From assembly GCA_946480785.1 (NCBI GenBank), contig CAMLLD010000026.1, forward strand, positions 1-64,000: 64,000 bases of DNA, read 5' to 3'. A program made the translations under genes and the position numbers. The notes below the pieces were generated by a model. The model saw only the letters and a program-made list of their open reading frames with translations. It did not search any database and was not told the DNA's origin. Source of the stretch: an uncultured Blastocatellia bacterium. Lineage in GTDB: Bacteria; Acidobacteriota; Blastocatellia; Pyrinomonadales; Pyrinomonadaceae. Below, piece after piece: positions 18,701-40,993 of the stretch (positions are counted from its first letter, which is position 1; each line of letters opens with the position of its first letter).

Positions 18701-18828
18701 CCGTCGGCAACATGGCCTCACCTTACTTCTTGAAATCCGCTTCGGCTTCAAATAACTTCTTCTTCGGCCAGGGCAGCGGCTCCGGCGGCAATCGCACCAT
18801 CACCTTGAGACTCAGGCTGGGTTTCTGA
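15727..18828 (+). CDS. Large TonB-dependent receptor-like outer membrane protein with Pro/Ala-rich insertions
   Basis: The 1,033-residue product has a signal peptide (MLRCALLLCVLAMPVPAQ). A carboxypeptidase-regulatory domain lies at about 20-105 (GMVKGTVTDQLDSLVVGATVTLRN...HLAPGTYTLKVIAPGFNVFEEK). A plug-like region (about 125-215) and a barrel end in GNRTITLRLRLGF with C-terminal Phe. Two low-complexity tracts interrupt the barrel: about 55 residues rich in PAKP/PAPV/TATT near residue 580-635, and a second (PAKPPAKPPVQRPY) near 955. Such tracts normally sit in surface loops or long turns. There is no partner operon. The substrate is unknown. Confidence 0.85.
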   Translation: MLRCALLLCVLAMPVPAQQTNGMVKGTVTDQLDSLVVGATVTLRNANEVVVSAKTNSAGVYEFKHLAPGTYTLKVIAPGFNVFEEKSVNVRARETTTVNAQLDVAFEEQQVVVDDRNISTDADNNAGAVVLRGRDLEALPNDPQALLAALQSLAGPVDPEAGGPQIKVDGFSNGQLPPKEAIREVRVNNNPFSAENEFPGFGGIEIFTQPGADKWHGGIAFDFNDESLNSRNPYTTRRAPYQQRAYSFNLSGPIKPKRASFSVFFNRYLSDANSVVNATVLDDATLKPVTLNQSFITPEKTNYGNGRIDFKINKQHTLVGRFSYNGSTQDLQGIGGFALPSRAYGGRRTNFVVQLTETAMLNEKTVNETRFQWIRSRFKQTSTDDGFALNVQDSFFGGGSQVGASSNTQQRFELQNFTSWTKGNHFLKVGARLRHSHIDSVSPGNFGGTYTFAGGLGPKLDANDQPVLGPNNQPLLVEVSSLERYRRTLAFARAGMSPAAIRLLGGGATQFSIAGGIPEAEVKQTDVSFYLQDEWKVRPNFTLSPGLRYENQNNIDNNFDFAPRLAFAWSPNFGGKKAAPAPVKPAAPADSSAATPAKPVTPAKPATPTATTAATTPAAAAPPPGPPKTVFRGAAGLFYNRVSEDLTLQSIRFDGVHQQQYVVTDPQVLNLFPAIPSIDQLSAFSQPQLRRDIADDFHTWRSLRVMFSVERLLPAKIRLSVTYFYGRTTRQMRATNINAPLGGTFILGQPDSGVRPLGSAAGNIFEYQSNGRSIGNTLSVNVNGNLKKLSFWGGLNLNKTRNTDSGTSGSPFDAYDFSHEWARTPYGSLLFAYGGNSYSAPHDISFNTFMLASSGVPFNITTGRDTNGDTIFSERPAFATDLNKPGVVITPLGAFDPTPVPGQTIIPRNFGRGPGFMLVSLNVAKTWKFGKAIEPKSPPPGGPTTTNAGSAATTAGNAPAKPPAKPPVQRPYSLTFSISVNNLFNRNNQGSPVGNMASPYFLKSASASNNFFFGQGSGSGGNRTITLRLRLGF

Positions 18829-23880: not shown

Positions 23881-24390
23881 ATGTCAGCTCTCGACGCTGA
23901 ATCTCTGATCGCCGCGTGGCGCACTAACAACCGCGTCACGACCTATCTGATCGAAAACCTGCCGGCCGAGTTGTGGTCCATGGACGTTCCCGGCGTGCCG
24001 CGCCGCACGATTCGCACGATCGCCGCGCACCTGCACAACTCGCGTTGCGCTTGGATCAAATCGCTCGGCGCACGCCACGGGATCGCGACGCCGAGTCGCG
24101 TCGATCTCCGGACAGTGCGTCCCGCAGAACTCTTACGCGCGCTTTCGCGGAGCAGCGAAGGCATCATCGCCCTGATTCGTCTCGGCGCTGAACGCGGCGG
24201 CTCAGTCCCGCCGGCGCACTGGCAAAACTTTCCCACCGATCTCGTTCACTTTCTCAACTACTTCGTCGCCCACGAAGCCCACCACCGCGGTCAACTGATC
24301 TTGATCGCGCGCCAACTCGGCCACCGCCTGCCGCGCGAAGTTGTCGATGGCCTGTGGCAATGGAAGATCCGCGCGCGCGCGCGTAGTTAG
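23881..24390 (+). CDS. DinB-like four-helix protein
   Basis: The 169-residue helical product has the DinB/YfiT metal-binding pattern: a His in IAAHLHNSRCAW and the pair in FVAHEAHHRGQLI near residue 135. This fold includes DNA-damage-induced DinB proteins and thiol-dependent transferases (DUF664, mycothiol/bacillithiol S-transferases). Which activity applies is not visible. It is the last gene before the compositionally distinct block. Confidence 0.75.
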   Translation: MSALDAESLIAAWRTNNRVTTYLIENLPAELWSMDVPGVPRRTIRTIAAHLHNSRCAWIKSLGARHGIATPSRVDLRTVRPAELLRALSRSSEGIIALIRLGAERGGSVPPAHWQNFPTDLVHFLNYFVAHEAHHRGQLILIARQLGHRLPREVVDGLWQWKIRARARS

Positions 24391-24452
24391 GAAGCTCAGT
24401 GGGGCAATACTCCCCATCTCGCAGTAATAGTTATTGAATCTAAGTCGCGGAA

Positions 24453-24481
24453 TTGACAGTGCTGCGGGCAGGTGTTACACA
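24453..24481 (+). promoter_or_regulatory. Promoter of the Crp/Fnr-type gene
   Basis: TTGACA (24453-24458), 17 bases, TACACA (24476-24481). It is the only good promoter in the 325-base gap 24391-24715. The leader would be about 230 bases and includes the inverted repeat at 24584-24615. Confidence 0.5.
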
Positions 24482-24583
24482 GTCTTCATCTCGGATATTT
24501 GAAGTACGCTAAAAAGAAATCACTTCCTCCTCCGCTGCTCTGCGCTGTCGCTGGTCTCATCTCAGACAGCCGAAGTGATAAAC

Positions 24584-24615
24584 CCCAAAAAGTTACGAAG
24601 CGACCGGTTTTTGGG
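24584..24615 (+). promoter_or_regulatory. Inverted repeat in the Crp/Fnr gene leader
   Basis: CCCAAAAA (24584-24591) and TTTTTGGG (24608-24615) are exact reverse complements separated by 16 bases. It could be a leader hairpin or a protein site; nothing else in the leader favours either. Confidence 0.35.
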
Positions 24616-24715
24616 CGACTCAGTCTGCAGACTCGCGCCCGCGATAGAAGTGTGTGGCTGACGTGTCCGGAGAAAACGGCGCGGGCAGCAAACTTAGTTA
24701 TCAAGGGGAAGATCT

Positions 24716-25441
24716 ATGCCTACGGCCCTCACGCAAACTGCTGCATTTAGAAATCGGATATTGGCAGGCCTGCCGCGCGAAAAATACCCTGAACTGTTTT
24801 CCAATCTTAAGCCCGTCGAACTGCATACGCAGGAGATCCTTTACCACGCGGAAGATGAAATGCGTTCTGTTTATTTCATTAACAACGGCATCGCTTCCCT
24901 GATGTCAATTACGAGCGAAGGCAATAGCATCGAGGTTGGTAATATCGGCAGAGAAGGAATAGTGGGTGTTCCGGTGCTGCTGACGCACCTCAAAACGCCT
25001 CATCAGGTAATGGTGCAAGTGCCCGGTGACGCATTCATGCTCAGCGCCGATCTTCTGAGACAGGAATTCAGCAAGGACGGCATCTTAAAAGATCGGCTTC
25101 TCTCCTATACTCACGTGCGTGCTACCTATATGTCCCAACTCGGTGTTTGCAATCACTTCCATACCGTCGATAAGCGGCTTTGCCGTTGGTTGCTGGTCAG
25201 CAGTCTCCAGATGCAATCACAAAGCTTTCGCATGACGCACGAATCACTTTCGCAAGTGCTGGGCACCGGTCGAACCGGCGTTACGATGGCGGCAAACAAA
25301 CTCCAAAAGGCAGGCTTACTCAAGTATCACCGCGGCGAAATTACGATTCTCGATCGCGCCGGTATGGAAAGCGCGTGCTGCGATTGCTATCAAATCACTA
25401 AAGAGCTCTTCGCCTCTTTATTCGGCTCTTCAATGTCCTAA
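24716..25441 (+). CDS. Crp/Fnr family transcriptional regulator
   Basis: The 241-residue product has an N-terminal cyclic-nucleotide-binding-like barrel at about 15-135 (ELHTQEILYHAEDEMRSVYFINNGIASLMSI...VGNIGREGIVGVPVLL). A dimer helix and a winged helix follow; the recognition region is MTHESLSQVLGTGRTGVTMAANKLQKAGLL. The cAMP phosphate-binding RxS motif is not evident and there is no Fnr-type N-terminal Cys cluster, though CCDC occurs near the C-terminus. The effector is therefore unknown. It has an AGGGGA ribosome site. It sits just upstream of the peptide cluster, with possible operator repeats in between. Confidence 0.85.
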   Translation: MPTALTQTAAFRNRILAGLPREKYPELFSNLKPVELHTQEILYHAEDEMRSVYFINNGIASLMSITSEGNSIEVGNIGREGIVGVPVLLTHLKTPHQVMVQVPGDAFMLSADLLRQEFSKDGILKDRLLSYTHVRATYMSQLGVCNHFHTVDKRLCRWLLVSSLQMQSQSFRMTHESLSQVLGTGRTGVTMAANKLQKAGLLKYHRGEITILDRAGMESACCDCYQITKELFASLFGSSMS

Positions 25442-25476
25442 TCTCACGACCACTAAGCGCGAGTTATGGTCAGCGA

Positions 25477-25511
25477 GTGACGGTCACTCAGTGACGGTCA
25501 CGGAATGACGG
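25477..25511 (+). promoter_or_regulatory. Tandem operator-like repeats, 14-bp period
   Basis: Two exact 11-bp palindromes GTGAC-g-GTCAC lie at 25477-25487 and 25491-25501, and a third partial copy TGACGG starts at 25506, all in 14-base steps. They occupy the gap between the Crp/Fnr-type gene and the radical SAM gene. A regulator binding here would control the peptide operon. The spacing does not match a classical Crp site (TGTGA-N6-TCACA). Confidence 0.45.
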
Positions 25512-25577
25512 ACGGCTGAATCATTTTTTTCGTATCGTTTGCCACGTTCACTCATTGCTAAGCAGACTCGCCTCCCA

Positions 25578-27020
25578 ATGACGGGTCAGTTTACTTGCCC
25601 AGATAAATTGTTGTTCTTCCCCCGTCCAAATCATCTGGTTACTGATCTGCCTGAGGCGTACATGGAATTAGTTCAAATCGCTCACCGGTTTCTTTCGAAC
25701 CAGGAGCTTACAAAACGGCAAGAAACTCGCTACGTCCAATTCACTGAACCCTTTCAGCCGAACGGCTTACCTTATCTTTCAGAAGGCTTCAACATCCGTT
25801 TGCATACCGGTGATTGGGCGGCGCTGTTTCCGCGCTATCACCTGATGTTCGTCTCTCCCGATCTGCAACGTACGAGGGAATTCATCGCTCACCAGGCGAA
25901 TGGGTATGAACGGCTGCTTACTGAGCCGATGAAGGAAAGTTTCGCAACGTATTTTCAGTTCCCGCGCGATCCTTACCCGGACTCGAATCCTTTCCCGCAA
26001 GGACAAGTTTTGGATTCGACGATCTGTTTTCTGCCGACAAACGACTGTAGCCTGGGATGTAAATACTGCTTCTCCGGTGCTCAACCTAAAAAATTTGGCG
26101 CTATCCCATGGGAGATCGCAAAAGCGGCTATAGACCTCGGAACGAGGAATGCCGTCATGAATCGGATACGGTCAGGAAGCGGCAAGCTCGAGATTCGTTT
26201 TTTTGGCGGAGGCGAGCCGACTGAGTACTGGGATAGTTTTTCTTCCATCGTCGAGTATGCAAGAGCGAATGCCAAAAAGAGCAATGTCGACGTTACGGTA
26301 GCCACGATCACAAATGGCCAGGTCGATCCGGAACACTACGAATGGTTCAGAGATAACATCGACGAAATTACCGTCTCCATGGATGGCCCACCCGAAATCC
26401 AAAACGCGCAACGCCCAACCGCCGCCGGCGAGAACTCCTTTGATAAGTCCTGGGCATTTCTGTCGCAGATGGACGCGTTCGAGAAGAACATCAAGTGCAT
26501 ACGCGTAACCGTCACGGCCCAGACCGTCACTCGAATGGAAGAGATAACGACGTTCTTTTGGGACAACCTCCAAAAGCCCTACACCATGCAATTCGAAGCG
26601 GTCTATTTTTCAGAGGTGGGAAGGCAGAACACTGAAATGCCGCAGGCCCTGGAGTTTGTCAAAGAGTTTCGACGTCTGGAGGAGATGGTTTATCAACGTT
26701 GCGCCGCCGGTCAAAAACACGGATTGGTCGGGTCGGCCGCAAAACCTCTGGCCATTCGCGTCGGCGCGTACTGCGACTCGTTGGAAGGAAGAGGATTGTT
26801 TGTTACGCCCGATGGTTACTTAAGCATCTGTTCCGAAATCAGTGTGCCCACCGATCCACGCAAGGACGATTACTTCGTCGGCAAGTACGATTCATCCACC
26901 AAACGATTCCATGTTTCAGAGCGAGGCGCCGCAAATATACGCAAGGGCACTCCCTGGTGGTGCCGCGGCTGCTTTGCACAATTTTCGTGTCGGGGTGGTT
27001 GTGAACTCGCAAAACGCTGA
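25578..27020 (+). CDS. Radical SAM/SPASM peptide maturase
   Basis: This is 480 residues from the ATG at 25578; an upstream in-frame TTG at 25539 is the alternative, and neither has a good ribosome site. About 150 N-terminal residues are unrecognised. The radical SAM core has CSLGCKYC (Cys 157, 161, 164) for the 4Fe-4S cluster and the FFGGGEPT glycine-rich SAM-binding motif. The SPASM region begins with a Cys followed by GYLSIC (Gx4C), then CRGCFAQFSCRGGC, an exact CX2CX5CX3C. The canonical seventh SPASM Cys is missing before the stop but present in the +1 frame. Directly downstream is the (CQ)5 precursor, so this enzyme probably installs thioether or other radical crosslinks on that peptide. 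Confidence 0.85.
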   Translation: MTGQFTCPDKLLFFPRPNHLVTDLPEAYMELVQIAHRFLSNQELTKRQETRYVQFTEPFQPNGLPYLSEGFNIRLHTGDWAALFPRYHLMFVSPDLQRTREFIAHQANGYERLLTEPMKESFATYFQFPRDPYPDSNPFPQGQVLDSTICFLPTNDCSLGCKYCFSGAQPKKFGAIPWEIAKAAIDLGTRNAVMNRIRSGSGKLEIRFFGGGEPTEYWDSFSSIVEYARANAKKSNVDVTVATITNGQVDPEHYEWFRDNIDEITVSMDGPPEIQNAQRPTAAGENSFDKSWAFLSQMDAFEKNIKCIRVTVTAQTVTRMEEITTFFWDNLQKPYTMQFEAVYFSEVGRQNTEMPQALEFVKEFRRLEEMVYQRCAAGQKHGLVGSAAKPLAIRVGAYCDSLEGRGLFVTPDGYLSICSEISVPTDPRKDDYFVGKYDSSTKRFHVSERGAANIRKGTPWWCRGCFAQFSCRGGCELAKR

Positions 27021-27189
27021 TAAGTACATCAGGCGCTGGTGGTGCCAGATGGTCAGGGCCAATATCAGAAACACCTGGACCGATGTACGAGCAAACCGAA
27101 TACAGGCGCGAGCGCGAATTGGAGACCCGCACGGTGAAGAGTTGATATGGCTGCCGATATGGGATGTCTCCGCTTCGATGGATGATTAG
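27010..27189 (+). other. Out-of-frame C-terminal tail of the SPASM maturase (+1 frameshift)
   Basis: Immediately after ELAKR the original frame stops (TGA 27018-27020). A +1 shift near 27010-27017 continues with ADKYIRRWWCQMVRANIRN and stays open to TAG at 27187-27189. The CQMVR segment has the form and distance of the last SPASM cysteine. With it, the enzyme would have all seven auxiliary-cluster cysteines and end 42 bases before the precursor ATG. The break may be a real mutation, a base error, or programmed frameshifting at CGC-TGA-T. Confidence 0.55.
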
Positions 27190-27231
27190 CCCAAACCAGT
27201 CGTTCCCAAACTTACGAAAGGAGGTGAGCCT

Positions 27232-27384
27232 ATGTCCTACGAAAAACCTACTATTGTCACTCTGACATTTGCTGAAGTCGAAAACGCCAAGATCGTGGCG
27301 ATGCTGCAATCACAACCGGACCAGCCAGTTGATGGCGGCGGCGGATGTCAATGTCAATGTCAATGCCAATGCCAGGCACAGTAG
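27232..27384 (+). CDS. RiPP precursor peptide with (Cys-Gln)5 core
   Basis: This 50-residue ORF is too short for most gene callers but has the strongest ribosome site in the window, AAAGGAGGTGA, eight to nine bases before its ATG. The leader reads MSYEKPTIVTLTFAEVENAK, then IVAMLQSQPDQPVD. The core is GGGGCQCQCQCQCQAQ, ten residues of alternating Cys and Gln after four Gly. It is followed by a hairpin and by PqqD-peptidase and exporter genes, and preceded by the SPASM maturase. That context is typical of ribosomally made, post-translationally modified peptides. The Gly4 run could mark the cleavage site. I know of no described class with a (CQ)n core. Confidence 0.8.
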   Translation: MSYEKPTIVTLTFAEVENAKIVAMLQSQPDQPVDGGGGCQCQCQCQCQAQ

Positions 27385-27404
27385 ACCGACGATAAACAGA
27401 TTAC

Positions 27405-27441
27405 CCGGAATAAGCCGGATCTCTTATCCGGTTTATTCCGG
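27405..27441 (+). terminator. 16-bp hairpin after the precursor gene, without U-tract
   Basis: Bases 27405-27420 pair with 27426-27441 (CCGGAATAA..., one G-U pair) around a five-base loop, 20 bases after the precursor stop. No T-run follows, so it is better read as a stability or partial-termination hairpin that would raise precursor mRNA over the enzyme and transporter genes. This and a few plain bases fill the 116-base gap 27385-27500. Confidence 0.55.
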
Positions 27442-27500
27442 CTAACATCGCAGTTATTTGCGCCGGCCCATCACACCGCGCGTAGTTCAGGGGATTTGCC

Positions 27501-28739
27501 ATGAATACCTATCACCCGCTTTGTGCGCTTGAGAACCTGCAGATCGAAGCAGCCGGGAATGAATTCATTGTCTTCGACTCTAAAGCAAAAACATTCCATC
27601 TCTTAAATTCCACTGCTTACAGCATTCTCGAGGCGTGCAACGGCTCAAATACGATCAGCGATATTGCGACGAGCCTATCCGGTAAATTCGGTCGTGAGGA
27701 TGTGGATTCGGTTTTAGCAGACGTCACCGAAACTGTTGGTTTGCTTGAATCCAAGGGATTGCTGTCGCTTGTGACCAGTGAATCTGTTTCGCCGATTGAA
27801 TCAGGGCTTGGTAGTGATGGCCCGCTTCTGGCTGTCTCTGTTACCGGAACAAGCATGTTCCCGGTGCTCCTTTCCGGAGACAAGGTGTTAGTAAAGAAGA
27901 TTTTACCGGAAGAGTTAAGTGTTGGCGACATCGTTGTTTGGTCAAATAACTCCAGGGAGTGGATAGCCCATCGGATCATTTCACTTGATACATCATCCAC
28001 TCCGGCACTGATAACCACGAAAGGTGATCTGTACTATCAGGCAGATCCACCGATTGCAGTCGATCGAATATTAGGGAAGGTCATGGCGGTGCTTCAGGAT
28101 GGCGAGCTCAAATGGCTTAAGGATCTTGAAAGCAGTGGGAGTCCGGCAGCGCGGAATGGATCGAGTGCGGAGCAATCACAACGGAGACCTTCGTACAAGG
28201 GACTGAAGGTGCTGGACCTGCGGGAAATTTCGGTTGATTGCATTCAAAGTATCGAATCAGTTGAGGACGTCAGTCTCGTCGTCCTCGCTCCTGAAAACGA
28301 GCACGCGTGGCCGCAAGTAGCAACAAAGAATGTAAAGTCGGTTTTCACCGCGCCTAAGGAATACAGGTTATACACGGGCCAACCGGAGTTGTTACCAGAA
28401 ATGCTCGAGTTCATGCCCGAACCGCTGCGGCTGATCGTATCGGGACAACTCTTCCTCACGCGCTTTGAGCCGCAACAGATACGCGAGACGTTCAGGGAGT
28501 TGATAGTGATGGGGCAGGTATATGTGAGCTCAGTCGAAGGAAAAACTGCAGTTGAATCGATCGCAAAAATCATCACCGGCGGGATCTCGATTGTGCCGGC
28601 GGAACACACGCGCTGGCTCGGCGAATCGATTCTGGGCCCGGAGTATACAAGTCAGCACAGGCCCCTCGTGGCGATCGGAGATTTGTCGATTTCCGAACGC
28701 CTGAAGCAAATGCCGACCGGTGTGACGGTCTACAGATAA
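27501..28739 (+). CDS. PqqD-like leader-binding domain fused to an S26-type signal peptidase and a novel C-terminal domain
   Basis: The 412-residue product has three parts. Residues 15-95 are PqqD-like (FIVFDSKAKTFHLLNSTAYSIL...TISDIATSLSGKFG...LLESKGLL), the fold that binds RiPP leaders. Residues about 108-205 are an S24/S26 peptidase of the Ser-His type: Ser118 in VTGTSMFP, His157 in WIAHRII, and Asp176/Asp182 in TTKGDLYYQAD. Residues about 222-412 (LKVLDLREISVDCIQSIESVEDVSLVVL...) are an unrecognised domain that is repeated in the next gene. No transmembrane helix is evident, which is unusual for a signal peptidase. The likely job is to hold the precursor leader and remove it. Confidence 0.75.
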   Translation: MNTYHPLCALENLQIEAAGNEFIVFDSKAKTFHLLNSTAYSILEACNGSNTISDIATSLSGKFGREDVDSVLADVTETVGLLESKGLLSLVTSESVSPIESGLGSDGPLLAVSVTGTSMFPVLLSGDKVLVKKILPEELSVGDIVVWSNNSREWIAHRIISLDTSSTPALITTKGDLYYQADPPIAVDRILGKVMAVLQDGELKWLKDLESSGSPAARNGSSAEQSQRRPSYKGLKVLDLREISVDCIQSIESVEDVSLVVLAPENEHAWPQVATKNVKSVFTAPKEYRLYTGQPELLPEMLEFMPEPLRLIVSGQLFLTRFEPQQIRETFRELIVMGQVYVSSVEGKTAVESIAKIITGGISIVPAEHTRWLGESILGPEYTSQHRPLVAIGDLSISERLKQMPTGVTVYR

Positions 28740-28764
28740 TCAGTTTGAAAGTCAGGAGCAGCTC

Positions 28765-29451
28765 ATGGGAACTACTATCAAAGACGTGCCGATCCTCGAT
28801 TTGAGATCGGTATCACGCGACGCGATCTCGCAGATTGACCTCGTGGAAAACATAAAGACTGTTGTGGTGAGCACTGAAAACGTAGAAGCGTTTATGTCGG
28901 TGCCGAGAGTTGAGGTCCGCTCTCATCTAATCATCCATCCTGACGAAAAACTGTTCATCGGTCAGATTGAGTTCAACGATAGTTTTCTAAATCAACTCTC
29001 CGCAAACACGAAGCTCGTTATCCTCGGTCATGTGCTGATCGACGGGTTCACCATATCATTGTTCCACGAACGTATTCAGAGTCTTAGAGTCTACGGACAA
29101 ATAGTCTATGCGGATGCCAGAAGTGCGGCGGCGCTGCTGGCTCGGTTGGAAAGACTGCAAGGCCAACTAATACGAATGCGTCCCAACTCTATTCGCTGGA
29201 TAGGCGTGACAAACCTGAACGCGAATAAATTGGACGCCGTTGCCGGCCGGCCGGTCGTCAGCATAGGTCCGATAAAAATCGATCCGGACCTGCCTGCGAC
29301 CGACATTACAAAAGCAATCCCTTCGATGGTCCAGATCGGCGAGATTATCGGACCGGAAGAAGCTGTGTCCGCGCTGTTTTCTGTCTGCGAACGACGATTA
29401 GGAACGTACCGGTTAGCTCAAGTGGAAAAGGCTCACTACGCGGGTACTTGA
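28765..29451 (+). CDS. Cluster protein of unknown function sharing the fusion's C-terminal domain
   Basis: This 228-residue product has an AGGAG ribosome site. It aligns by eye with residues 222-412 of the preceding protein: VPILDLRSVSRDAISQIDLVENIKTVVVS matches VLDLREISVDCIQSIESVEDVSLVVL, LVILGHVLIDGF matches LIVSGQLFLTRF, LRVYGQIVYA matches LIVMGQVYVS, and GRPVVSIGPIKI matches HRPLVAIGDLSI. The alternating hydrophobic strands suggest a stacked beta fold. There is no signal peptide and no catalytic motif. Its stop overlaps the beginning of the ABC exporter reading frame, so it is part of the operon. A scaffold or partner role is a guess. Confidence 0.65.
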   Translation: MGTTIKDVPILDLRSVSRDAISQIDLVENIKTVVVSTENVEAFMSVPRVEVRSHLIIHPDEKLFIGQIEFNDSFLNQLSANTKLVILGHVLIDGFTISLFHERIQSLRVYGQIVYADARSAAALLARLERLQGQLIRMRPNSIRWIGVTNLNANKLDAVAGRPVVSIGPIKIDPDLPATDITKAIPSMVQIGEIIGPEEAVSALFSVCERRLGTYRLAQVEKAHYAGT

Positions 29452-29459
29452 GAGCACTA

Positions 29460-31307
29460 ATGATGACGGTTCGGAAGCTCGCGCAAAGTGTTTCTGCCTA
29501 CCTCAGCATTCTTCGTATCGTATCCGCGGGGAACCGTTCTCTCTTTGCTACGTCGCTGGTTGTTAATATTCTAATCGCACAAGTACCGGCCCTGTTGGCC
29601 TACACCAGTAAGAACGTTGTCGACTCGCTGCTGTCGCGAAGTTACGCTACCCGCTCCTTCATTCCTCTTTCGCCGCCCCTCTTCTTTGGGTGTGTTTATC
29701 TTTGCCTGTTGCTGGCCCAATACGCAGGCCAGGCCCTGCTGCTCCATTTGAATGAAATGCTGACTGAGAGTGGCTCGAAGCATATTCACGCGCAGATCAT
29801 TCAGTCAGCTATTCGAATGGAAGGTCTTTATTATTTTGAAAACCCCGCGTTTCATAATCGAAGATCGTTGCTGGAACGGGATGCTTTGTACATCCCGATG
29901 AATATCCTGCGCTTCGCGACCGACGTCTCGAGTATTGCGGTTACCACCTTTGGCATGGTGCTGCTACTCGCCGGTCTTCACCCGCTCATACCCGTTCTAA
30001 TCCTGCTCTCCGGGATACCGGATGTGATCGCCCAGAAAAAAGGCCATCGACTGATCTATGAAGGCATCAGGGAAACTGCCCACGAGGAACGAAGAAAAGA
30101 ATACTTTCGCTCGGTGCTGCTCGACGAAGAACACGCCAAGGAAGTACGACTCTATAACCTCGCCAACTATTTCATCAGCAAATACAACGAGTCGTTCAGA
30201 CGCGTTCTCGAGCTCGTCGTCCCCATCCGAAAGCGTCACATAAGAAGCTCGAATCTTAGTCGTGTTCTTGTGACTATAGGAGCTGTTCTTCCTTATCTCT
30301 GGACCATCGGCAAAGCGTTGCGCGGTGAAATCACTCCGGGCCAGTTGGTCCTCTTTATGACCGCGATAGTCGTAATCCATCAGCAGATGGCCAGAACAGC
30401 CCAAACGCTCGCTGGTCACCAGGACGTTATCTATGTGATGAGAGAGCTTGCTGCGTGGCTGGAAATGAAACCGGATCTCGTTTCAGTGGCGCCGAATCTT
30501 CAGGTAAGGAGAAAGCCTGAGCTGCCGCCACAGGTCAGAATCTCCAATCTGTGGTTTAGTTATCCCCGCTCCGATCGAGACGTGTTGCGCGGAGTTGATC
30601 TCGAAATACCCCACGGAAAATCGCTGGCGATCGTCGGCCGAAACGGCTCCGGTAAAACAACTCTCGTAAAGCTCTTGTGCCGGTTGTATGACCCCACTCA
30701 AGGGACAATCTGCTACGACGGGATCGACATCCGGCTGCTCAATCTCGATGACTTGCGAAACTCCATCGGAATTATTTTCCAGGACTTCAACCGGTATCAC
30801 TTAACGATCAATGAGAACATCGCCCTCGGAAAGGCTACCGACAATGCGACGCTCAATGATGTACATCAAGCTGCCACAGCGGCCGGGGCAGCGGATTTCA
30901 TCGAGCGCACGGCGCAAGGTTACGACACGCTGCTGGGCAATCAATTTTCAGGCGGGCACGAATTGTCCGGTGGCCAATGGCAACGGCTGGCGCTCGCGAG
31001 AGCTTTTTTTCGCAACGCGGGCCTGCTGGTGCTGGATGAACCTACTGCGTCGGTGGACATCGCTACTGAAGCCCGCCTCTATGCACGTTTCAAAAAGATG
31101 ACCGAGGGCAAAACGGCCCTGTTGATCTCGCATCGGTTGTCTACTGTTCGCATTGCCGATCGCATCGCTGTTCTCGAAGCCGGCAAGGTCATCGAATTCG
31201 GAGATCACGAGAGCCTCATGAGTTTGCAGGGGACCTACAATGAGATGTTTGTGATCCAGGCGGAGCGGTTTCGACGATCAGAGGAATTTGCAACTATCCA
31301 GCGCTAA
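29460..31307 (+). CDS. ABC exporter half-transporter (permease-ATPase), first of pair
   Basis: This is 615 residues from ATG 29460; an upstream in-frame TTG at 29448 is possible. The N-terminal membrane domain (about 15-330) has around six hydrophobic segments. The ATPase domain has Walker A IVGRNGSGKTT near 390, signature HELSGGQWQRLALARAFF near 500, Walker B LLVLDEPTAS near 522 and the switch LLISHRLSTV. There is no N-terminal C39 peptidase, consistent with a separate S26-type protease in the cluster. It probably forms a heterodimer with the next gene to export the modified peptide. Confidence 0.85.
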   Translation: MMTVRKLAQSVSAYLSILRIVSAGNRSLFATSLVVNILIAQVPALLAYTSKNVVDSLLSRSYATRSFIPLSPPLFFGCVYLCLLLAQYAGQALLLHLNEMLTESGSKHIHAQIIQSAIRMEGLYYFENPAFHNRRSLLERDALYIPMNILRFATDVSSIAVTTFGMVLLLAGLHPLIPVLILLSGIPDVIAQKKGHRLIYEGIRETAHEERRKEYFRSVLLDEEHAKEVRLYNLANYFISKYNESFRRVLELVVPIRKRHIRSSNLSRVLVTIGAVLPYLWTIGKALRGEITPGQLVLFMTAIVVIHQQMARTAQTLAGHQDVIYVMRELAAWLEMKPDLVSVAPNLQVRRKPELPPQVRISNLWFSYPRSDRDVLRGVDLEIPHGKSLAIVGRNGSGKTTLVKLLCRLYDPTQGTICYDGIDIRLLNLDDLRNSIGIIFQDFNRYHLTINENIALGKATDNATLNDVHQAATAAGAADFIERTAQGYDTLLGNQFSGGHELSGGQWQRLALARAFFRNAGLLVLDEPTASVDIATEARLYARFKKMTEGKTALLISHRLSTVRIADRIAVLEAGKVIEFGDHESLMSLQGTYNEMFVIQAERFRRSEEFATIQR

Positions 31308-33127
31308 TGAGTATGCGATTGCTGAACAAAGTAAAGATCGTCCTGCGAGTCTGGAGATTTCTTTATCAGTATCAACGGTACGGGATCCTGTGGGGAGTTG
31401 CGCTCATTCTCGCCGGTCTGTATCCCGCAATCACTGCGTGGATCTCCAAACAGGTTATCAATGCCGTCTTCGCGCCAGCTCACCAGCAGCTTGTAAGCTG
31501 GCTACCGAACGCCTTCCTGTTCGCGATCGCCTATGGTGTTGTCAGCCTGGTACACGGAATCATCACCACGTCTTCCGCCGTTGAGCTGGTTACGATCAAA
31601 GATAGGAATACTCGGGTCACCGATCAGTTATTGATGGAGAAAACAGCGGGCTCCATAGGTATCACGGCTTATGCGCTTTCACAGACCAGAGATGAGATCC
31701 GTTTAGCATCAATAGGCGGACAATCTTTACCAGCTTGTTTCACTGAGAGCGTCGACCTGTTTCAACATTTGGTTGCGGTAATCGCCTTGTCGATTATTCT
31801 CATTCATTACCATCCGTTAGTGGCGGCGATAGTTTTGTTGCCGGCGATACCGCTGCTTTACACCCAACCAAAAGTTCGGGCCAACACTGTGGCGGCGTTG
31901 ATCTATGAGAGCCCGTTGTATCGGCAGATGGGATATTTTCTCGAGTTGATGCTGGGGACGAGCACGGCCAAGGAAATCAGGATTTATCGCACCGGCCACT
32001 TTTTCCTTGATAAGTATCGGCACGCGGCGGATGCGATTATCAAGAAAGCCCGAGGTCTACGCTGGAGCGCCACGAAAAGCGCCATCTTGTGGGGATCGCT
32101 CGCTGCCGCAGGGATCGGCGGAGCTTATCTCTACATCATCTATTTGGCGACGACCAACGCGATCAGTATTGGTGACGTGGTGATGTACAGTGCCGCCGTG
32201 TTCTACACTGGCGGCTCCATCCGCGCGTTAATTCAGAGTGCGTCTTCGTTGTCCGGCAGCATTATTTCGGTAGAGAATTTCTTTGCCTACCTCGATCAAC
32301 AGCCTCCGGCGGTTGCGTCACAATCCATTTCAGGCGTGGCGACGGCTGATTTGAGAAGCCCGGAGTGGAAGATAGACCACCTTACGTATTCGTATCCCGA
32401 ACGCAGCGAGAAAGCGCTCGACGATGTCAGCTTTAGTATCAAGCCAAAAGAGAAGATCGCCATCGTTGGCCTGAACGGAGCGGGTAAGACAACGCTTATG
32501 AAGCTGATGCTGCGTCTACTCGAGCCTGATGAAGGGACTATCAGCTTTCGCGGAATCGACCTCAGAGACTGGGACGTGCCAGTGCTGAGGAAAAACTTCG
32601 GGGTTGTCTTTCAGGATTTCTCGAAGTTTAAGTTAACGCTTTACGACAATATCGCTTTGGCCTTAAATGGAGCGTCTGCGGATCATCGTGATGCTGCGGT
32701 ATTCAATGCCGCTCGTTTGGCAGGAGTAGACGAGATTGCCGATCGCTCACCGCAAGGTTACCAAATGCAACTCGGAAAGGAGTTTTCAAAGGGCACCGAT
32801 CTGTCAGGAGGACAATGGCAACGCGTCGCCGTTGCCAGAGGATTTGTCAGAGATGCCGAGGTGGTTTTTCTTGATGAACCCACCGCCGCCCTGGATGTGA
32901 AAACAGAGCGAGCGCTGTTTGAGCAGTTGATGGCTTTGGCGCAGAATAGAACGGCAATCATAATCTCGCACCGGTTATTCGTTACGCCCATGGTCGATCG
33001 CATATTGGTGCTTGACCGTGGACGCCTGGTTGAGGAGGGCCGGCACGATCAACTCATGAGACGAGACGGTGTTTATGCAGAGATGTTCAAAACTCAGGTA
33101 GGACTATATTGGCCGGCGGCACAGTAG
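31307..33127 (+). CDS. ABC exporter half-transporter (permease-ATPase), second of pair
   Basis: The 606-residue product starts at the ATG sharing one base with the previous stop (TAATG), so translation is coupled. The membrane domain spans about 15-325. The ATPase has Walker A IVGLNGAGKTT near 388, signature TDLSGGQWQRVAVARGFV near 498, Walker B VVFLDEPTAALD near 520 and IIISHRLFV. Both nucleotide sites look intact. Sequence divergence from its partner points to a heterodimeric exporter. Confidence 0.85.
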   Translation: MSMRLLNKVKIVLRVWRFLYQYQRYGILWGVALILAGLYPAITAWISKQVINAVFAPAHQQLVSWLPNAFLFAIAYGVVSLVHGIITTSSAVELVTIKDRNTRVTDQLLMEKTAGSIGITAYALSQTRDEIRLASIGGQSLPACFTESVDLFQHLVAVIALSIILIHYHPLVAAIVLLPAIPLLYTQPKVRANTVAALIYESPLYRQMGYFLELMLGTSTAKEIRIYRTGHFFLDKYRHAADAIIKKARGLRWSATKSAILWGSLAAAGIGGAYLYIIYLATTNAISIGDVVMYSAAVFYTGGSIRALIQSASSLSGSIISVENFFAYLDQQPPAVASQSISGVATADLRSPEWKIDHLTYSYPERSEKALDDVSFSIKPKEKIAIVGLNGAGKTTLMKLMLRLLEPDEGTISFRGIDLRDWDVPVLRKNFGVVFQDFSKFKLTLYDNIALALNGASADHRDAAVFNAARLAGVDEIADRSPQGYQMQLGKEFSKGTDLSGGQWQRVAVARGFVRDAEVVFLDEPTAALDVKTERALFEQLMALAQNRTAIIISHRLFVTPMVDRILVLDRGRLVEEGRHDQLMRRDGVYAEMFKTQVGLYWPAAQ

Positions 33128-33136
33128 CAGAACCTC

Positions 33137-35581
33137 ATGACTCACTTCTTTAAATTCTTCAAAGGGATCTTAAAAGACGTACGTTATGCCGGCCGCCGGC
33201 TGCGAAAATATCCGGTGTTGTCGTTTGGCATCGTGTTAACTGTGGCCCTTGGCATCGGTGCCAATGCAACGATTTTCGGCGTCATCAATGCAGTGCTGCT
33301 GGATCCACTTCCTTACAAAAATCCCGATCGCCTCGTGCGGCTTTGGGAAAATAATCCGGGGCAGACTCAGCCTGAATCTCCTGTCTCCGTGCCGAACTTC
33401 CAAGACTGGCAACGGCAGCAGTCGGTCTTTCAGGAACTAGCGGCATTAGAGCCGGCGACTTTCAATATCACGGGTTGGGGTGAACCGCAGCGAGTCGCCT
33501 CCGCTCGCATCACCGCTAACCTCATACCAGCGTTGGGAGTCTCTCCCGAACTCGGCCGCAGTTTTCTTCCTGAAGAAGAACAGCCGGGCCACAGTCGCGT
33601 CGCACTATTGAGCGACACGCTTTGGCAGCGACAATTCGGCGCCGATCGATCCATCGTGAATCGAACGATTCAGCTCAACGGTGAGACTTATACCGTAGTC
33701 GGCGTGATGCCACCCGGATTCCAGTTCAGTGGCAATAGAGAGCTGTGGGTCCCGCTGGTAATCGATCCGCAGAAGGAACCCTGGCGCGCCGACCGCAGTA
33801 ATCGCAATCTGTCGGTATTTGGCCTGCTGAAACCCGGGGTAAGTTTCAACCAGGCGGTTTCAGATATGAACGTCGTAGCCCAACGTTTGGGAGAACAGCA
33901 TCCGGAATCAAACACAGGATGGCGCGTGCACCTGAGCACGTTTTATGACTGGCTCGTGCCGAAAGAGGTGCGGACCGCGATGCTGGGGTTGTTTATCGGC
34001 GTCAGCTTATTGCTGTTGATTGCCTGCGTGAACGTGGCAAATCTACTGCTGGCCAATGTGACGTCGCGGCAACAGGAAATGGCGATGCGCGCCGCTTTAG
34101 GCGCATCTCCCAGTCGTTTGATTAGACAACTATTGAGCGAGAGCTTGCTGCTGGCACTGTTCGGTGGAGTGCTCGGGTTGGCGTTCGCCTTTTGGGCCAC
34201 GAGAGTGATTTCCTCCGCCAACATGCAAAATATCGCTCGACTCAGTGAGGCTCGCATCGACGGTTCCGTACTCGTCTTTACGTTGATCGTGACCACTATT
34301 ACCGGAGTGATTTTCGGCCTGGCGCCGGCTTGGTTCGCTTCCCGCGTCAATCTTACCGACAAATTGAAAGAAGGCGCCCGCAGCGTTAGCGACAAGGGAA
34401 CGCACCGCCTGCGTAGTGCGTTGGTGGTGGCGGAAGTCACGATGGCGGCGGCGGTCCTCGTGAGTGCGGGCTTGTTGGTGACCGTGTTGGCGCGGCTGCA
34501 AGCTGTGCCGCCAGGCTTCTCACCCGATAACGTTTTTACGATGCAGATTAGCTTGCCGGGATCGAAGTACGGTGAGCGCCAGCAGCGAGTTAATTTCTTC
34601 GATCAACTGCTGCAGCGGCTGCGCGCGATTCCTGGTGTGGTCGACGCCGCGGCAGTTCAACAAGCGCCGGGATCCATCAACGACTGGTCCTTGGAAATTA
34701 TTCTGGAAGGCGCCGCGGCCGCAACGACGCAGACGAAATCATCCGCCCAGGCACACGCTGTTACCCCGCGTTATTTCCAGACGATGGGCATTCCGTTTAT
34801 ACAAGGACAGGATTTCGCATACCACTATCGAGCGGATCAACCGCTGGAATATATAGTCAGCGAAAGCTTCGCGCAGCGCTATTGGCCCAACGAAAATGCC
34901 ATCGGCCAACATTTTCGTGCAGGCCCAAATAATCCCGTTGGCACAGTGGTGGGTATTGTTGGCGACGTGCGTACACTCAACTCGCAGCAGGACGCCGCGC
35001 CTGCTTTCTACTTTCCTTACGGTTACGTTGGTATGCCCGGAATGGTGGTGGTGGTGCGCACAAACGGCCCACCGGAAACCTTTGCGACATCGCTTCGCGC
35101 CGAGGTGAGCCAAATCGATCGGGACCAGCCTGTATATAACGCGCGAACTATGAACGAAATCATTGCTCGCGCCACCTCGCAGCAACGTTTTCAGGCAATC
35201 CTATCGAGCACCTTTGCCGTCGTCGCTTTGCTACTGGTGGCTGTCGGGATCTATAGCGTCGTGGCCTACTCGGTACGACAGCGCCATCGGGAGATCGGTA
35301 TCCGCATGGCTGTGGGGGCGAGTGCTCCGAAGATATTGATCATGGTCATCGCGCAGGGCATGCGTAATGTATTGCTTGGCCTGGCGCTCGGACTCGTTGG
35401 TTCCGTAGCCTTAACGCGCTTGATAGGCAGTTCCGTGTTCGGGCTTACGACGCCGGCAACAGACCTGCGCATCTATCTTCTGGTCGCGTTGCTACTCATG
35501 GCCGTTGCCTTCATCGCTTGCTATCTACCGGCCTGGCGCGCAACAAAGATCAATCCTTCGCTGGCGTTGCGAAGTGAATAA
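33137..35581 (+). CDS. ADOP-type duplicated FtsX/MacB permease
   Basis: The 814-residue product starts with a short DVRYAGRRLRKYP preface and TM1 (LSFGIVLTVALGIGANATIFGVINAVLL). A large extracytoplasmic MacB_PCD domain follows (PYKNPDRLVRLWENNPG...VVGVMPPGFQF), then three TM segments near 290-410. A second MacB_PCD and final FtsX-like TM block end at ATKINPSLALRS. Two permease repeats in one chain are the mark of the acidobacterial duplicated orphan permease group, which usually lack a dedicated ATPase gene, as here. Ten bases after the exporter pair, it may serve export or self-protection in the peptide system, but these proteins are very common and could be a passenger. Confidence 0.85.
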   Translation: MTHFFKFFKGILKDVRYAGRRLRKYPVLSFGIVLTVALGIGANATIFGVINAVLLDPLPYKNPDRLVRLWENNPGQTQPESPVSVPNFQDWQRQQSVFQELAALEPATFNITGWGEPQRVASARITANLIPALGVSPELGRSFLPEEEQPGHSRVALLSDTLWQRQFGADRSIVNRTIQLNGETYTVVGVMPPGFQFSGNRELWVPLVIDPQKEPWRADRSNRNLSVFGLLKPGVSFNQAVSDMNVVAQRLGEQHPESNTGWRVHLSTFYDWLVPKEVRTAMLGLFIGVSLLLLIACVNVANLLLANVTSRQQEMAMRAALGASPSRLIRQLLSESLLLALFGGVLGLAFAFWATRVISSANMQNIARLSEARIDGSVLVFTLIVTTITGVIFGLAPAWFASRVNLTDKLKEGARSVSDKGTHRLRSALVVAEVTMAAAVLVSAGLLVTVLARLQAVPPGFSPDNVFTMQISLPGSKYGERQQRVNFFDQLLQRLRAIPGVVDAAAVQQAPGSINDWSLEIILEGAAAATTQTKSSAQAHAVTPRYFQTMGIPFIQGQDFAYHYRADQPLEYIVSESFAQRYWPNENAIGQHFRAGPNNPVGTVVGIVGDVRTLNSQQDAAPAFYFPYGYVGMPGMVVVVRTNGPPETFATSLRAEVSQIDRDQPVYNARTMNEIIARATSQQRFQAILSSTFAVVALLLVAVGIYSVVAYSVRQRHREIGIRMAVGASAPKILIMVIAQGMRNVLLGLALGLVGSVALTRLIGSSVFGLTTPATDLRIYLLVALLLMAVAFIACYLPAWRATKINPSLALRSE

Positions 35582-37917: not shown

Positions 37918-39189
37918 ATGAAAATGAGAAGTCTAATCGCCCTGGCGCCAGTTCTCTTTGTCTTTTCCGCCGTGGAAATTCGGGCACAGGAGAGCAATAC
38001 CAATCAGCTCGTGCGGCCGCGCGTCGTCGCGCAAAATCCGGCCGCTCCGACGGTAAATCCGAAATTACCTGTAACTGTTAATCCGAACGTGCCGCTGCCG
38101 GAGAGCGCTCCCGCAGCAACGACCGCTGCGGAAACACAGAAACCGGCCACGACTGCGCCGCTCAATTTCCTGACGCCGTCGCTGATTCAGTCGCGCATTT
38201 CCGAAGCGCGCCGGATGATGAAGACACGGCCGGTGACGACGGCGTTGACCGTGCCGTCGATCGACTTTGTCACGATCGCGGCGCTCGATCGCGAAAACGC
38301 CAAAACGCACCTGATCACACTTTCGAAGCAGTCGTTTCTGACGAAGGGCGCGCAGGTCAACGCGATCTCTTCATTGGGGACAAACGTCACGATCAACGTG
38401 TTGCGCGCGAATGGAGTCAACACCGCGCTCACGATCTTCACGCCCACGGGACAGTCGCTCGTGCCGCTCACGGTCGAGTATCCGATCGAGCGCAACGGGC
38501 TGTTTCGCGAGATGGCGTATTACACGTCCGCGCACCCGGCGCTGCTTTCGAACGACCTCGTGCGCTCGGGACAATCCTACATCCGCAACATGCTCGACCT
38601 CGCCGCGACGCGACTGCGGAACAGTGGCGTGCCCATCTCGCCGCAGATCGTGGACGTCGCCGAGCGTCTATGCGTTGTCGAACACGTCGATCACGAGCGC
38701 TTCCGCGCTGAAAACCGCATCGCTTTGTATGAAGAGATCTATTCGCTGTTTGCGCTCAACGAGCTAGACACGTATCGCTTTTCAGTGAGCAGCGCGGGCG
38801 CGGGCGGGATGGTGCAGATGATTCCGTGGGCTTACAACCTCGAGCGCACGCGGCATCCGGGCGTCGGTCTCATTCCCGATTTCGTCACCGGCATGCGCAA
38901 TCACGCGAATGCGCTGCAGGCGATGCTGCTTTACATGAACGACACGTGGAATGAATTAGCCGCGAATGAAGATGTGAAGAATGCGTTGGACACACAACTC
39001 GCGACGCCGACTGAATTGCTCGCCGCAGGTTACAACTCCAACGCCGCGAAGCTGCCGCTTTATTTGAAGCGCGGCGGCGACGCGTGGCGCACGTTGATTC
39101 CGCGTGAGACGCAGATGTACCTGCAGATCTACAAATCCTTCGAGAGCCTCGTGCCGCTGAAGGCGCGCTACAATCCCGTTACTAAGTAA
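37918..39189 (+). CDS. Secreted protein with divergent lytic-transglycosylase-like domain
   Basis: The 423-residue product has a signal peptide ([24 protein letters not shown]). A Pro/Ala/Thr-rich linker spans about 30-80 and a beta-rich middle domain follows. At about 280-310 the sequence [27 protein letters not shown] matches the SLT pattern, in which the catalytic Glu is eight residues before SSAGA and GxxQxxP follows. Spacing is identical to classical transglycosylases. The rest of the SLT fold is hard to see, so the call is tentative. A role in peptidoglycan remodelling is inferred. It overlaps the convergent exporter gene by 8 bases. Confidence 0.6.
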
Positions 39190-40984
39190 CAGCCTCGCGA
39201 TAGGAGGGGTCGGCATATTGGAGCTTGTAGAGTTTCCAATAGAGGCCCCGCTCCGCCAACAGTTCCTGGTGCGTTCCCTGCTCGCGAATCTCGCCGTGGT
39301 GCAACACGATGATGCGATCCGCGTTCTGAACCGTCGACAAACGATGCGCGACGACGATTGACGTGCGGTCGCGCATTACGCGTTCGATCGCCGCCTGAAT
39401 CAGTTGCTCCGTCTCGGTGTCGATCGAGCTCGTCGCTTCGTCGAGAATCAACAACGCCGGGTCAAAGGCGAGAGCACGGGCAAATGAAATGAGTTGCTTC
39501 TGGCCCACCGACAGCCCCGCGCCACGCTCACGCACTTCCGCTTTGTAGTTGTCTTTCAGACGACTAATGAAGCTATCCGCGTGAACTTCACGCGCCGCCC
39601 AACGCACGCGCTCTTCACTAATGTCTTCACGCCCGAGACGGATGTTGCCTTCGATCGTGCCGCTGAACAGAAACACTTCCTGCAGCACCACGGCGAAGTT
39701 TTCACGCAAAGCTTTCAAGTCCCACTCGCGCAGATCGACGCCGTCGAGCAGGATGCGGCCACGTTGAATGTCGTAGAAACGCATCAACAGGTTCGTGATC
39801 GTCGTCTTGCCCGAACCTGTGTGACCCACGAGCGCGATCGACTGTCCCGGCTCGACCGTGAACGACACGTCTTTCAAAACATAGTCTTCGTCCTTGTAAG
39901 CGAACCACACGTTCTGAAACTCGATGCGGCCGCGCGCGCGTTCGGCTTTCACAGGCTCCGCCGGCGAGAGAATCGCGATCGGCAAGTCGAGCGTCCTGAA
40001 AATGCGATGCGACGCCACGACCGCGGCTTGCAGCACGTTGTACTTGTCCGAGATGTCGCGGATCGGCTGAAACAACTGTTGCGAATACTGAATAAACGCG
40101 ACGAGCGCGCCCAGCGACAGCACGCCGTGCATCACGCGATAACCGCCGTACCAGATGATCAGCGCGACGCCGATCGCGCCGATCAGATCGACGAGCGGAA
40201 AGAACACCGCGTAATAAAAGATCGTGTCGATGTTTGCACGCCGATACTCGTCGTTGATGCCCTCGAAAGTGTTGACCGACTTCGCTTCGGCGTTGAAGAT
40301 TTGGACGGTTTGCGCGCCCGCGAAGTGCTCCTGCAGAAACGCGTTGATGCGCGCGATGCGCGTGCGCACGAGGTCGTAACCACGCCGCGCGCCGCGCCGA
40401 AACCACGTCGTCGCGCCGAAGAGCAGCGGCACCGTCAACAAAGTGATCAACGTCAACCGCACGTCCATCCACATCATCACGGAGATGATCGCGACGATCA
40501 TCACGAGATCGCCGAGCAGGTCAGTCACACCGGCGGTGAAGAGCTCGTTGAGCGCATCGACGTCGCTCGTGAGCCGCGTCATGATGCGGCCGACGGGATT
40601 GCGATCGTAATAAGCGATCTCCTGATGTTGCAGCTTGTCGTAAAGCTCCTTGCGCATGTCGAACATGACGTACTGTCCGATGCTGTTGAGCAGGATCGCC
40701 TGGAAATAAGAAAAGACGAGTCGCAGCAGTTGCGTGGCGAAGTACAACGCGACGAGTAAGCCCAGGCCTTCGAGTCGTTTCGGAAGGATGTGCCAATCGA
40801 TCGCGTACTGCGTGAACTTGGGCTGAAGTATGCCGAGCAGGTTGAGCGCGAGCGTCAGCAGGAGCGCCGGAATCAGCAGACGCACGTACGGCTTGAGATA
40901 GCGCAAGAGCCGCCGCGCGACCTGAAAGTCGTAAGTCTTGCCGATCGCTTCTTCTTCGTGAAACTGTGTTACTGCCGTCGCCAT
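39182..40984 (-). CDS. ABC exporter half-transporter, second of a pair
   Basis: The 600-residue permease-ATPase has a membrane domain at about 35-330 and Walker [12 protein letters not shown] near 382. The signature is [16 protein letters not shown], that is LSVGQ in place of LSGGQ, as in one half of several heterodimeric exporters. Walker B is [12 protein letters not shown] and the switch is VVAHRLSTV. It starts 10 bases after its partner gene ends. Such pairs (BmrCD or YheHI type) export drugs or lipids. The substrate is unknown. Confidence 0.85.
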
Positions 40985-40993
40985 TTAAATAAA

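What the first reader, a model, noticed from the sequence alone, without database searches (positions are those of the whole stretch)
25477..33127. Probable new RiPP-type system with a (Cys-Gln)5 core peptide
Seen: a 50-residue ORF (27232-27384) with the strongest ribosome site in the window and the C-terminus GGGGCQCQCQCQCQAQ. It is flanked by a radical SAM/SPASM enzyme, a PqqD-S26 peptidase fusion and a pair of peptide-type ABC exporters. Known: SPASM enzymes with PqqD domains modify ribosomal peptides, and several attach Cys sulfur to neighbouring residues. Inferred: up to five Cys-Gln units are crosslinked or chelate metal, the leader is removed at the Gly run, and the product is exported. 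I know of no described RiPP class with a (CQ)n core, but I could not search.
Basis: partly seen in the sequence, partly recalled or inferred. Interest (0 to 1): 0.93.

Follow-up and report, generated by a model that had tools for sequence, protein, structure and literature searches.

The report
New RiPP family with Cys-Gln repeat
A gene cluster, probably from a soil acidobacterium, encodes a tiny peptide ending in five Cys-Gln repeats beside a radical SAM enzyme, a fused PqqD-type and signal-peptidase-type protein and two ABC transporter genes; it is likely a new kind of peptide natural product in which each cysteine is predicted to be tied to a nearby glutamine.

Summary
The 50-aa ORF (27232-27384) ends (CQ)5AQ, and 32 homologues share its leader, Gly run and CQ repeat. 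It lies among a radical SAM/SPASM maturase, a PqqD-S26 fusion, a paralogue of that protein's C-terminal domain and two MsbA-like ABC genes; the order recurs in a Bryobacteraceae contig with a diverged leader but a similar core. Corrections: the window's maturase is frameshifted and loses the last SPASM cysteine, and the leader is probably not cut at the Gly run. The RRE-S26 fusion resembles a module shown in 2026 to cut LPP-family RiPP leaders: YxxP leader, identical Ser-His-Asp spacing, compatible -3/-2/-1 register. That predicts cleavage after Asn18. The maturase is closest to the ranthipeptide enzyme CteB in sequence and fold, and no eighth SPASM ligand is conserved, so Cys-S to Gln thioethers are the likeliest product (untested; the cores do not separate a Gln at +1 from one at +3). 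My searches found no paper on a (CQ)n RiPP; (Asp-Cys)n is the nearest seen in print. New variant of a known kind.

The parts
24716..25441 (+). Crp/Fnr-type regulator, likely regulator of the cluster
   Evidence: PF00027 and PF13545; 74% identical to the gene directly upstream of the maturase in L122
25459..25511 (.). 14-bp tandem array with GTGACGGTCAC palindromes, candidate operator
   Evidence: a 5-copy 14-bp array lies at the same place in L122
25578..27020 (+). Radical SAM/SPASM maturase, frameshifted near 27006. This reading begins at an ATG; the family start by alignment is the MELVQI methionine at 25662
   Evidence: CteB is the nearest solved structure of the family
27007..27189 (+). 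Out-of-frame remainder of the maturase C-terminus, carrying the last SPASM Cys (overlaps the preceding frame up to 27020)
   Evidence: one search compared with A2
27232..27384 (+). Precursor peptide with YxxPx[IV] leader, GGGG and (CQ)5AQ
27501..28739 (+). PqqD (RRE) + S26 serine peptidase + X domain fusion
28765..29451 (+). X-domain protein, paralogue of the C-terminal domain of the preceding protein, function unknown
   Evidence: no Pfam, NCBIfam or significant PDB sequence match
29448..31307 (+). MsbA-like ABC exporter half 1; no C39 peptidase found
31307..33127 (+). MsbA-like ABC exporter half 2; no C39 peptidase found

Best explanation
This is a conserved, probably acidobacterial, RiPP-type gene cluster whose 50-residue precursor ends in (Cys-Gln)5-Ala-Gln; its YxxP leader is predicted to be held by a PqqD-S26 fusion protein while a CteB-like radical SAM/SPASM enzyme likely joins each Cys sulfur to a Gln side-chain carbon, after which the S26 domain would cut after Asn18 and the ABC pair would export the product. 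Shown by sequence: the conserved precursor family, the gene set, the YxxPx[IV] leader, the S26 Ser-His-Asp triad at the spacing of the peptidase LppS, and seven conserved SPASM cysteines with no conserved eighth. Inferred by homology: leader binding by the RRE, RRE-assisted S26 cleavage after Asn18 (product A19-Q50, 32 aa), an open iron site on the AuxI cluster that binds a substrate Cys, and S-C thioether formation. Least certain: the acceptor carbon (Gln C-gamma is my guess, by analogy with Glu C-gamma of PapB and Asn C-beta of NxxcA) and the spacing (Cys i to Gln i+3 preferred over i+1). In the window itself the maturase gene carries a frameshift, so this copy may be inactive or the assembly wrong.
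Confidence: 0.58

Rival explanations
1. The radical SAM enzyme epimerises every second residue (D-Cys or D-Gln), giving an alternating L/D peptide that folds as a beta-helix, as in polytheonamide.
For: The alternating core suits 1,3 epimerisation, the PoyD pattern (PMC8326336 passages); Gln positions are kept even where Cys is replaced.
Confidence: 0.1
2. The peptide is a metal-binding or redox peptide (Cu, Zn or Fe-S) whose free Cys thiols coordinate metal, the SAM enzyme making only a minor change.
For: A dense Cys array and an exporter pair; metal-chelating Cys-rich RiPPs have been proposed in Antarctic soil bacteria (PMC8692599 passages); a TonB-dependent-receptor-like outer membrane protein lies upstream at 15727-18828.
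Against: Gln is more invariant than Cys in the 33-row alignment, which metal binding by thiols does not explain; no metal regulator or metal pump was recognised among the 20 window proteins scanned.
Confidence: 0.14
3. A sactipeptide-type product: Cys sulfur joined to Gln alpha carbons.
For: The same enzyme superfamily, and an open auxiliary cluster is also reported for the sactisynthase SkfB.
Confidence: 0.14
4. A lanthipeptide hybrid: a LanB/LanC pair dehydrates Thr in the core and Cys adds to it.
For: In L121 a full LanB follows the ABC pair, a LanC-like gene lies upstream, and the core has three Thr; of ten short ORFs with a strong ribosome site listed on that contig, the CQ one is the only one starting with ATG.
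Against: 30 of 33 precursor cores, the window's included, have no Ser or Thr (exceptions P0033, P0034 and the odd tail of P0036); no LanB or LanC among the 20 window proteins scanned.
Confidence: 0.04

Closest known systems
Ranthipeptides (CteB/SCIFF, PapB/freyrasin, NxxcA)
   Same: Radical SAM/SPASM maturase, nearest in sequence and fold to CteB; the same seven SPASM Cys align; Cys-rich core; acceptors named in PMC8326336 are side-chain carbons next to an acid, amide or hydroxyl
   Different: Scores far below the SCIFF and PapB cut-offs; the core is (CQ)n, not CX3D or six-Cys; a PqqD-type RRE sits on a separate PqqD-S26 protein
LPP (linear polyphosphorylated peptide) family, P. alginolyticus lpp cluster (PMC13381572, passages)
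   Same: YxxPx[V/I] leader, RRE with an Asn and an Asp at like spacing, archaeal-type signal peptidase with the same Ser-His-Asp spacing, MsbA-like exporter, compatible leader register up to the cut site
   Different: RRE and peptidase are fused and carry an extra X domain; a radical SAM/SPASM enzyme stands where LPP has an HprK-like kinase; acidobacterial, whereas the LPP peptidases studied are mostly from Bacillota
(Asp-Cys)n radical SAM clusters (Clusters 59 and 115 of PMC9062424, passages)
   Same: In Cluster 59, a precursor with a Cys-containing dipeptide motif, repeated up to six times, beside a radical SAM enzyme; product unknown
   Different: Asp in place of Gln; Cluster 59 is described as recombinase, rSAM and peptide only; no RRE-S26 fusion in the passage read
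Lasso peptides (B1 RRE)
   Same: Leader motif and RRE fold
   Different: No macrolactam synthetase or B2 cysteine protease among the ten cluster-region proteins scanned

Membership tests
Ranthipeptide | Radical SAM maturase with CX3CX2C and SPASM | tested here: met
   C129, C133, C136 and seven SPASM Cys in 39 of 39 family rows examined; the window copy itself loses the last one by frameshift
Ranthipeptide | Auxiliary cluster with an open coordination site | tested here: inconclusive
   Sequence count matches CteB (openness of CteB from PMC8326336 passages); no metal site modelled
Ranthipeptide | Non-alpha Cys thioether in the product | not testable with these tools
   Needs MS and NMR
SCIFF or PapB subfamily | Maturase reaches the curated NCBIfam cut-off | tested here: not met
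   93.2 of 425 bits and 91.7 of 340 bits for the full-length homologue P0038
LPP | YxxP leader read by an RRE | tested here: met
   Motif in 33 of 33 precursors; PqqD domain with the Asn and Asp in 104 of 104 ungapped rows; binding itself not tested
LPP | Archaeal-type signal peptidase with Ser-His-Asp triad | tested here: met
   Spacing 39 and 25 as in LppS; TIGR02228 above cut-off (57.8 against 51.85 bits)
LPP | HprK-like kinase and core phosphorylation | tested here: not met
   No such kinase among the ten proteins of 23881-35581 nor the nine L121 proteins scanned with Pfam; phosphorylation not testable
Lasso peptide | Macrolactam synthetase (C) and B2 peptidase | tested here: not met
   None among the ten proteins of 23881-35581 scanned
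Proteusin-type epimerised RiPP | PoyD-type epimerase without auxiliary clusters | tested here: not met
   Full SPASM motif present in the family; definition from PMC8326336 passages

The most novel reading that the evidence does not exclude
A new RiPP class: a ladder of interleaved Cys(i)-Gln(i+3) thioethers, the first Gln-carboxamide acceptor series, made by a CteB-like enzyme on a peptide that is handed over and cut by a single fused RRE-signal-peptidase protein.
Probability: 0.35. Interest if true: 0.86.

Novelty: new variant of a known kind. Interest (0 to 1): 0.72.

Why it matters
It pairs two modules that I did not find together in the papers searched: thioether-type radical SAM chemistry and the LPP-type RRE plus signal-peptidase leader cutter, here fused in one gene. 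It makes two sharp, cheap predictions (10 Da lost over five Cys; cleavage after Asn18). If Gln is the acceptor, it would add a residue to those named as thioether acceptors in the review I read (PMC8326336, passages) and give a simple repeat substrate for studying how such enzymes step along a peptide.

Tried and rejected
The genome-contig scan with the precursor alignment found 105 stretches but confirmed none by tblastn; I put this down to the short, low-complexity query without checking. Remote maturase loci L123-L126 (22-26% identity) showed no C-x-C-x-C-x-C run and no CQCQ in the stretches held. L132 (G434), the one further phylum hit, showed no short Cys-rich ORF of this kind in its 3,960 bases and is treated as another system. 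Six further loci hit by the PqqD-S26 profile were partial PqqD or S26 matches without a CQ-type short ORF in their stretches of about 3.3 kb. Plasmids: 53 records encode distant radical SAM relatives (under 32% identity in the 20 rows shown); not pursued. VIA rows for the PqqD-S26-X model span residues 2-207, so the X domain fold was barely tested. Rfam found nothing in 24000-34000. Cleavage at the Gly run was set aside but not excluded. Two papers on MNIO peptides that hold 'S26', 'PqqD' and 'radical SAM' were seen in the listing only; the protease review PMC10885120 likewise.

Full report
What is there. The repeat is not expected by chance and uses mixed codons. A search of 5.8 billion proteins found 32 relatives at E <= 1, the weakest at 7e-6. 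Aligned (33 rows), they share MxYEKPxIVxLTLAELENAKI, a variable linker, a Gly run and the CQ repeat. Position by position, Y3, P6, L11, E15, E17, A23, the last two Gly and all but C43, C47 and A49 of the repeat are invariant, while residues 26-35 vary: the signature of a leader, a spacer and a core. Cores number 34 with the L121 one; 26 are CQCQCQCQCQAQ, and the other eight keep the x-Q alternation with 6-8 Cys counted to the end of the ORF, some Cys replaced by A, S, L, G, Q or T. P0036 has an odd tail that may be a frameshift; it was kept in the counts.

Neighbours. Upstream, 25578-27020, is a radical SAM/SPASM enzyme; downstream are a PqqD-S26 fusion (27501-28739), a 228-aa protein (28765-29451) and two ABC genes (29448-31307, 31307-33127). 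The 228-aa protein is a paralogue of the C-terminal domain (about 231-412) of the PqqD-S26 protein (26% identity, E 6e-15 for the single comparison); the PqqD-S26 profile also hits the L121 copy of the small protein (E 9.5e-19). This 'X domain' has no Pfam or NCBIfam match and no significant PDB sequence match; in the model it shows alternating strands and short helices, mostly with pLDDT above 80. Its role is open.

Conservation of the set. A scan of one genome per species gave six maturase loci, two of them close. L121 (Bryobacteraceae MAG, 65%) has maturase, then a 47-aa ORF MAYPKASITSFTDDELDVKLGNEIRRFGGCTCQCQTQCQCQTQGCVE with an AGGAGG site, then PqqD-S26-X, the X protein and two ABC genes. 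So a strongly diverged leader still ends in a Cys/Gln alternation at the same place. L122 (Pyrinomonadaceae MAG, 83%) is cut by the contig end inside the maturase. The system is rare in sampled genomes: 1 of 162 genomes of one class and 1 of 257 of one order, each being the genome already known, and 2 of 396 of the phylum, one already known and one (G434) treated as another system. In the protein database 27 of 57 maturases with a contig length and 6 of 33 precursors share a reported longest-contig length with a PqqD-S26 protein; P0012 shares it with both. Equal length is only a proxy for the same contig, and one of the six is the window's own precursor. Of the 27 precursors without a match, 18 are on contigs under 3 kb, but nine are on longer ones, so linkage there is unproven. 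The window is placed near the L122 genome: its RNase E/G is 84% identical there, with no hit in the L121 genome at 1e-20.

The frameshift. The window's maturase stops soon after SPASM C447; the family's EPRSQN...WWCQMVR continues in another frame up to 27189. About 5 bases are missing by comparison with P0038, a 96-97% identical intact protein. Either this copy is decaying or the assembly is wrong. All mechanism below refers to the intact family.

Which bond. Over the nine distinct cores, 53 of 57 Cys have Gln at +1 and 53 of 57 at +3; every other offset tested (-7 to +7) does worse, and 32 of 34 cores are fully satisfied at +1 and equally at +3, the failures being P0036 and L121 both times. 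The last core Cys is followed by CQxQ in 32 of 34, which +3 explains and +1 does not; in L121, +3 serves 5 of 6 Cys and +1 serves 4 of 6. This is a mild preference only. PapB accepts CX0-6D and Glu, linking the carbon beside the acid (PMC9413430 passages), and NxxcA links Cys to Asn C-beta, so Gln C-gamma is a reasonable, unproven acceptor.

Regulation. A Crp/Fnr-type gene upstream (24716-25441) is 74% identical to the one before the maturase in L122, and both loci carry 14-bp tandem arrays with TGACnGTCA units between regulator and maturase. TGACNGTCAC occurs five times in the window (0.76 expected; four of the five are two palindromic sites read on both strands, one is elsewhere, at 3381) and four times in L122 (0.07 expected): a candidate operator. 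L121 has no GTGAC-GTCAC site.

Novelty. Of four papers holding 'CQCQCQ' three are unrelated by title and the fourth concerns self-assembling peptides (passages). 'Cys-Gln' with radical SAM, precursor peptide and repeat gave none, 'alternating cysteine' with radical SAM and precursor peptide none. The nearest in print that I saw is an (Asp-Cys)n radical SAM cluster of unknown product (PMC9062424 passages). Most subscription papers and all bioRxiv-only preprints lie outside that library.

Noticed in passing
25578-27189: The window's maturase is frameshifted (about 5 bases short against relatives), losing the last SPASM cysteine; either decay or assembly error.
   Followed up: partly
24716-25511: Crp/Fnr-type regulator followed by a 14-bp TGACnGTCA repeat array, both also present before the maturase in L122: a candidate operator for the cluster.
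   Followed up: partly
28765-29451 and about 28191-28739: An X domain with no known family, present twice (fused and free); the fused copy is predicted as alternating strands and short helices.
   Followed up: partly
L121:2489-3820 and L121:17615-20758: LanC-like and full-length LanB genes flank the Bryobacteraceae version, whose core contains Thr and whose S26 triad is lost; possible lanthipeptide hybrid.
   Followed up: partly
33137-35581: ADOP-type FtsX/MacB permease directly after the ABC pair; LanB takes this place in L121, so it is probably not part of the system.
   Followed up: no
39182-42736: A second pair of ABC exporter genes on the minus strand, with full ABC_membrane matches.
   Followed up: no
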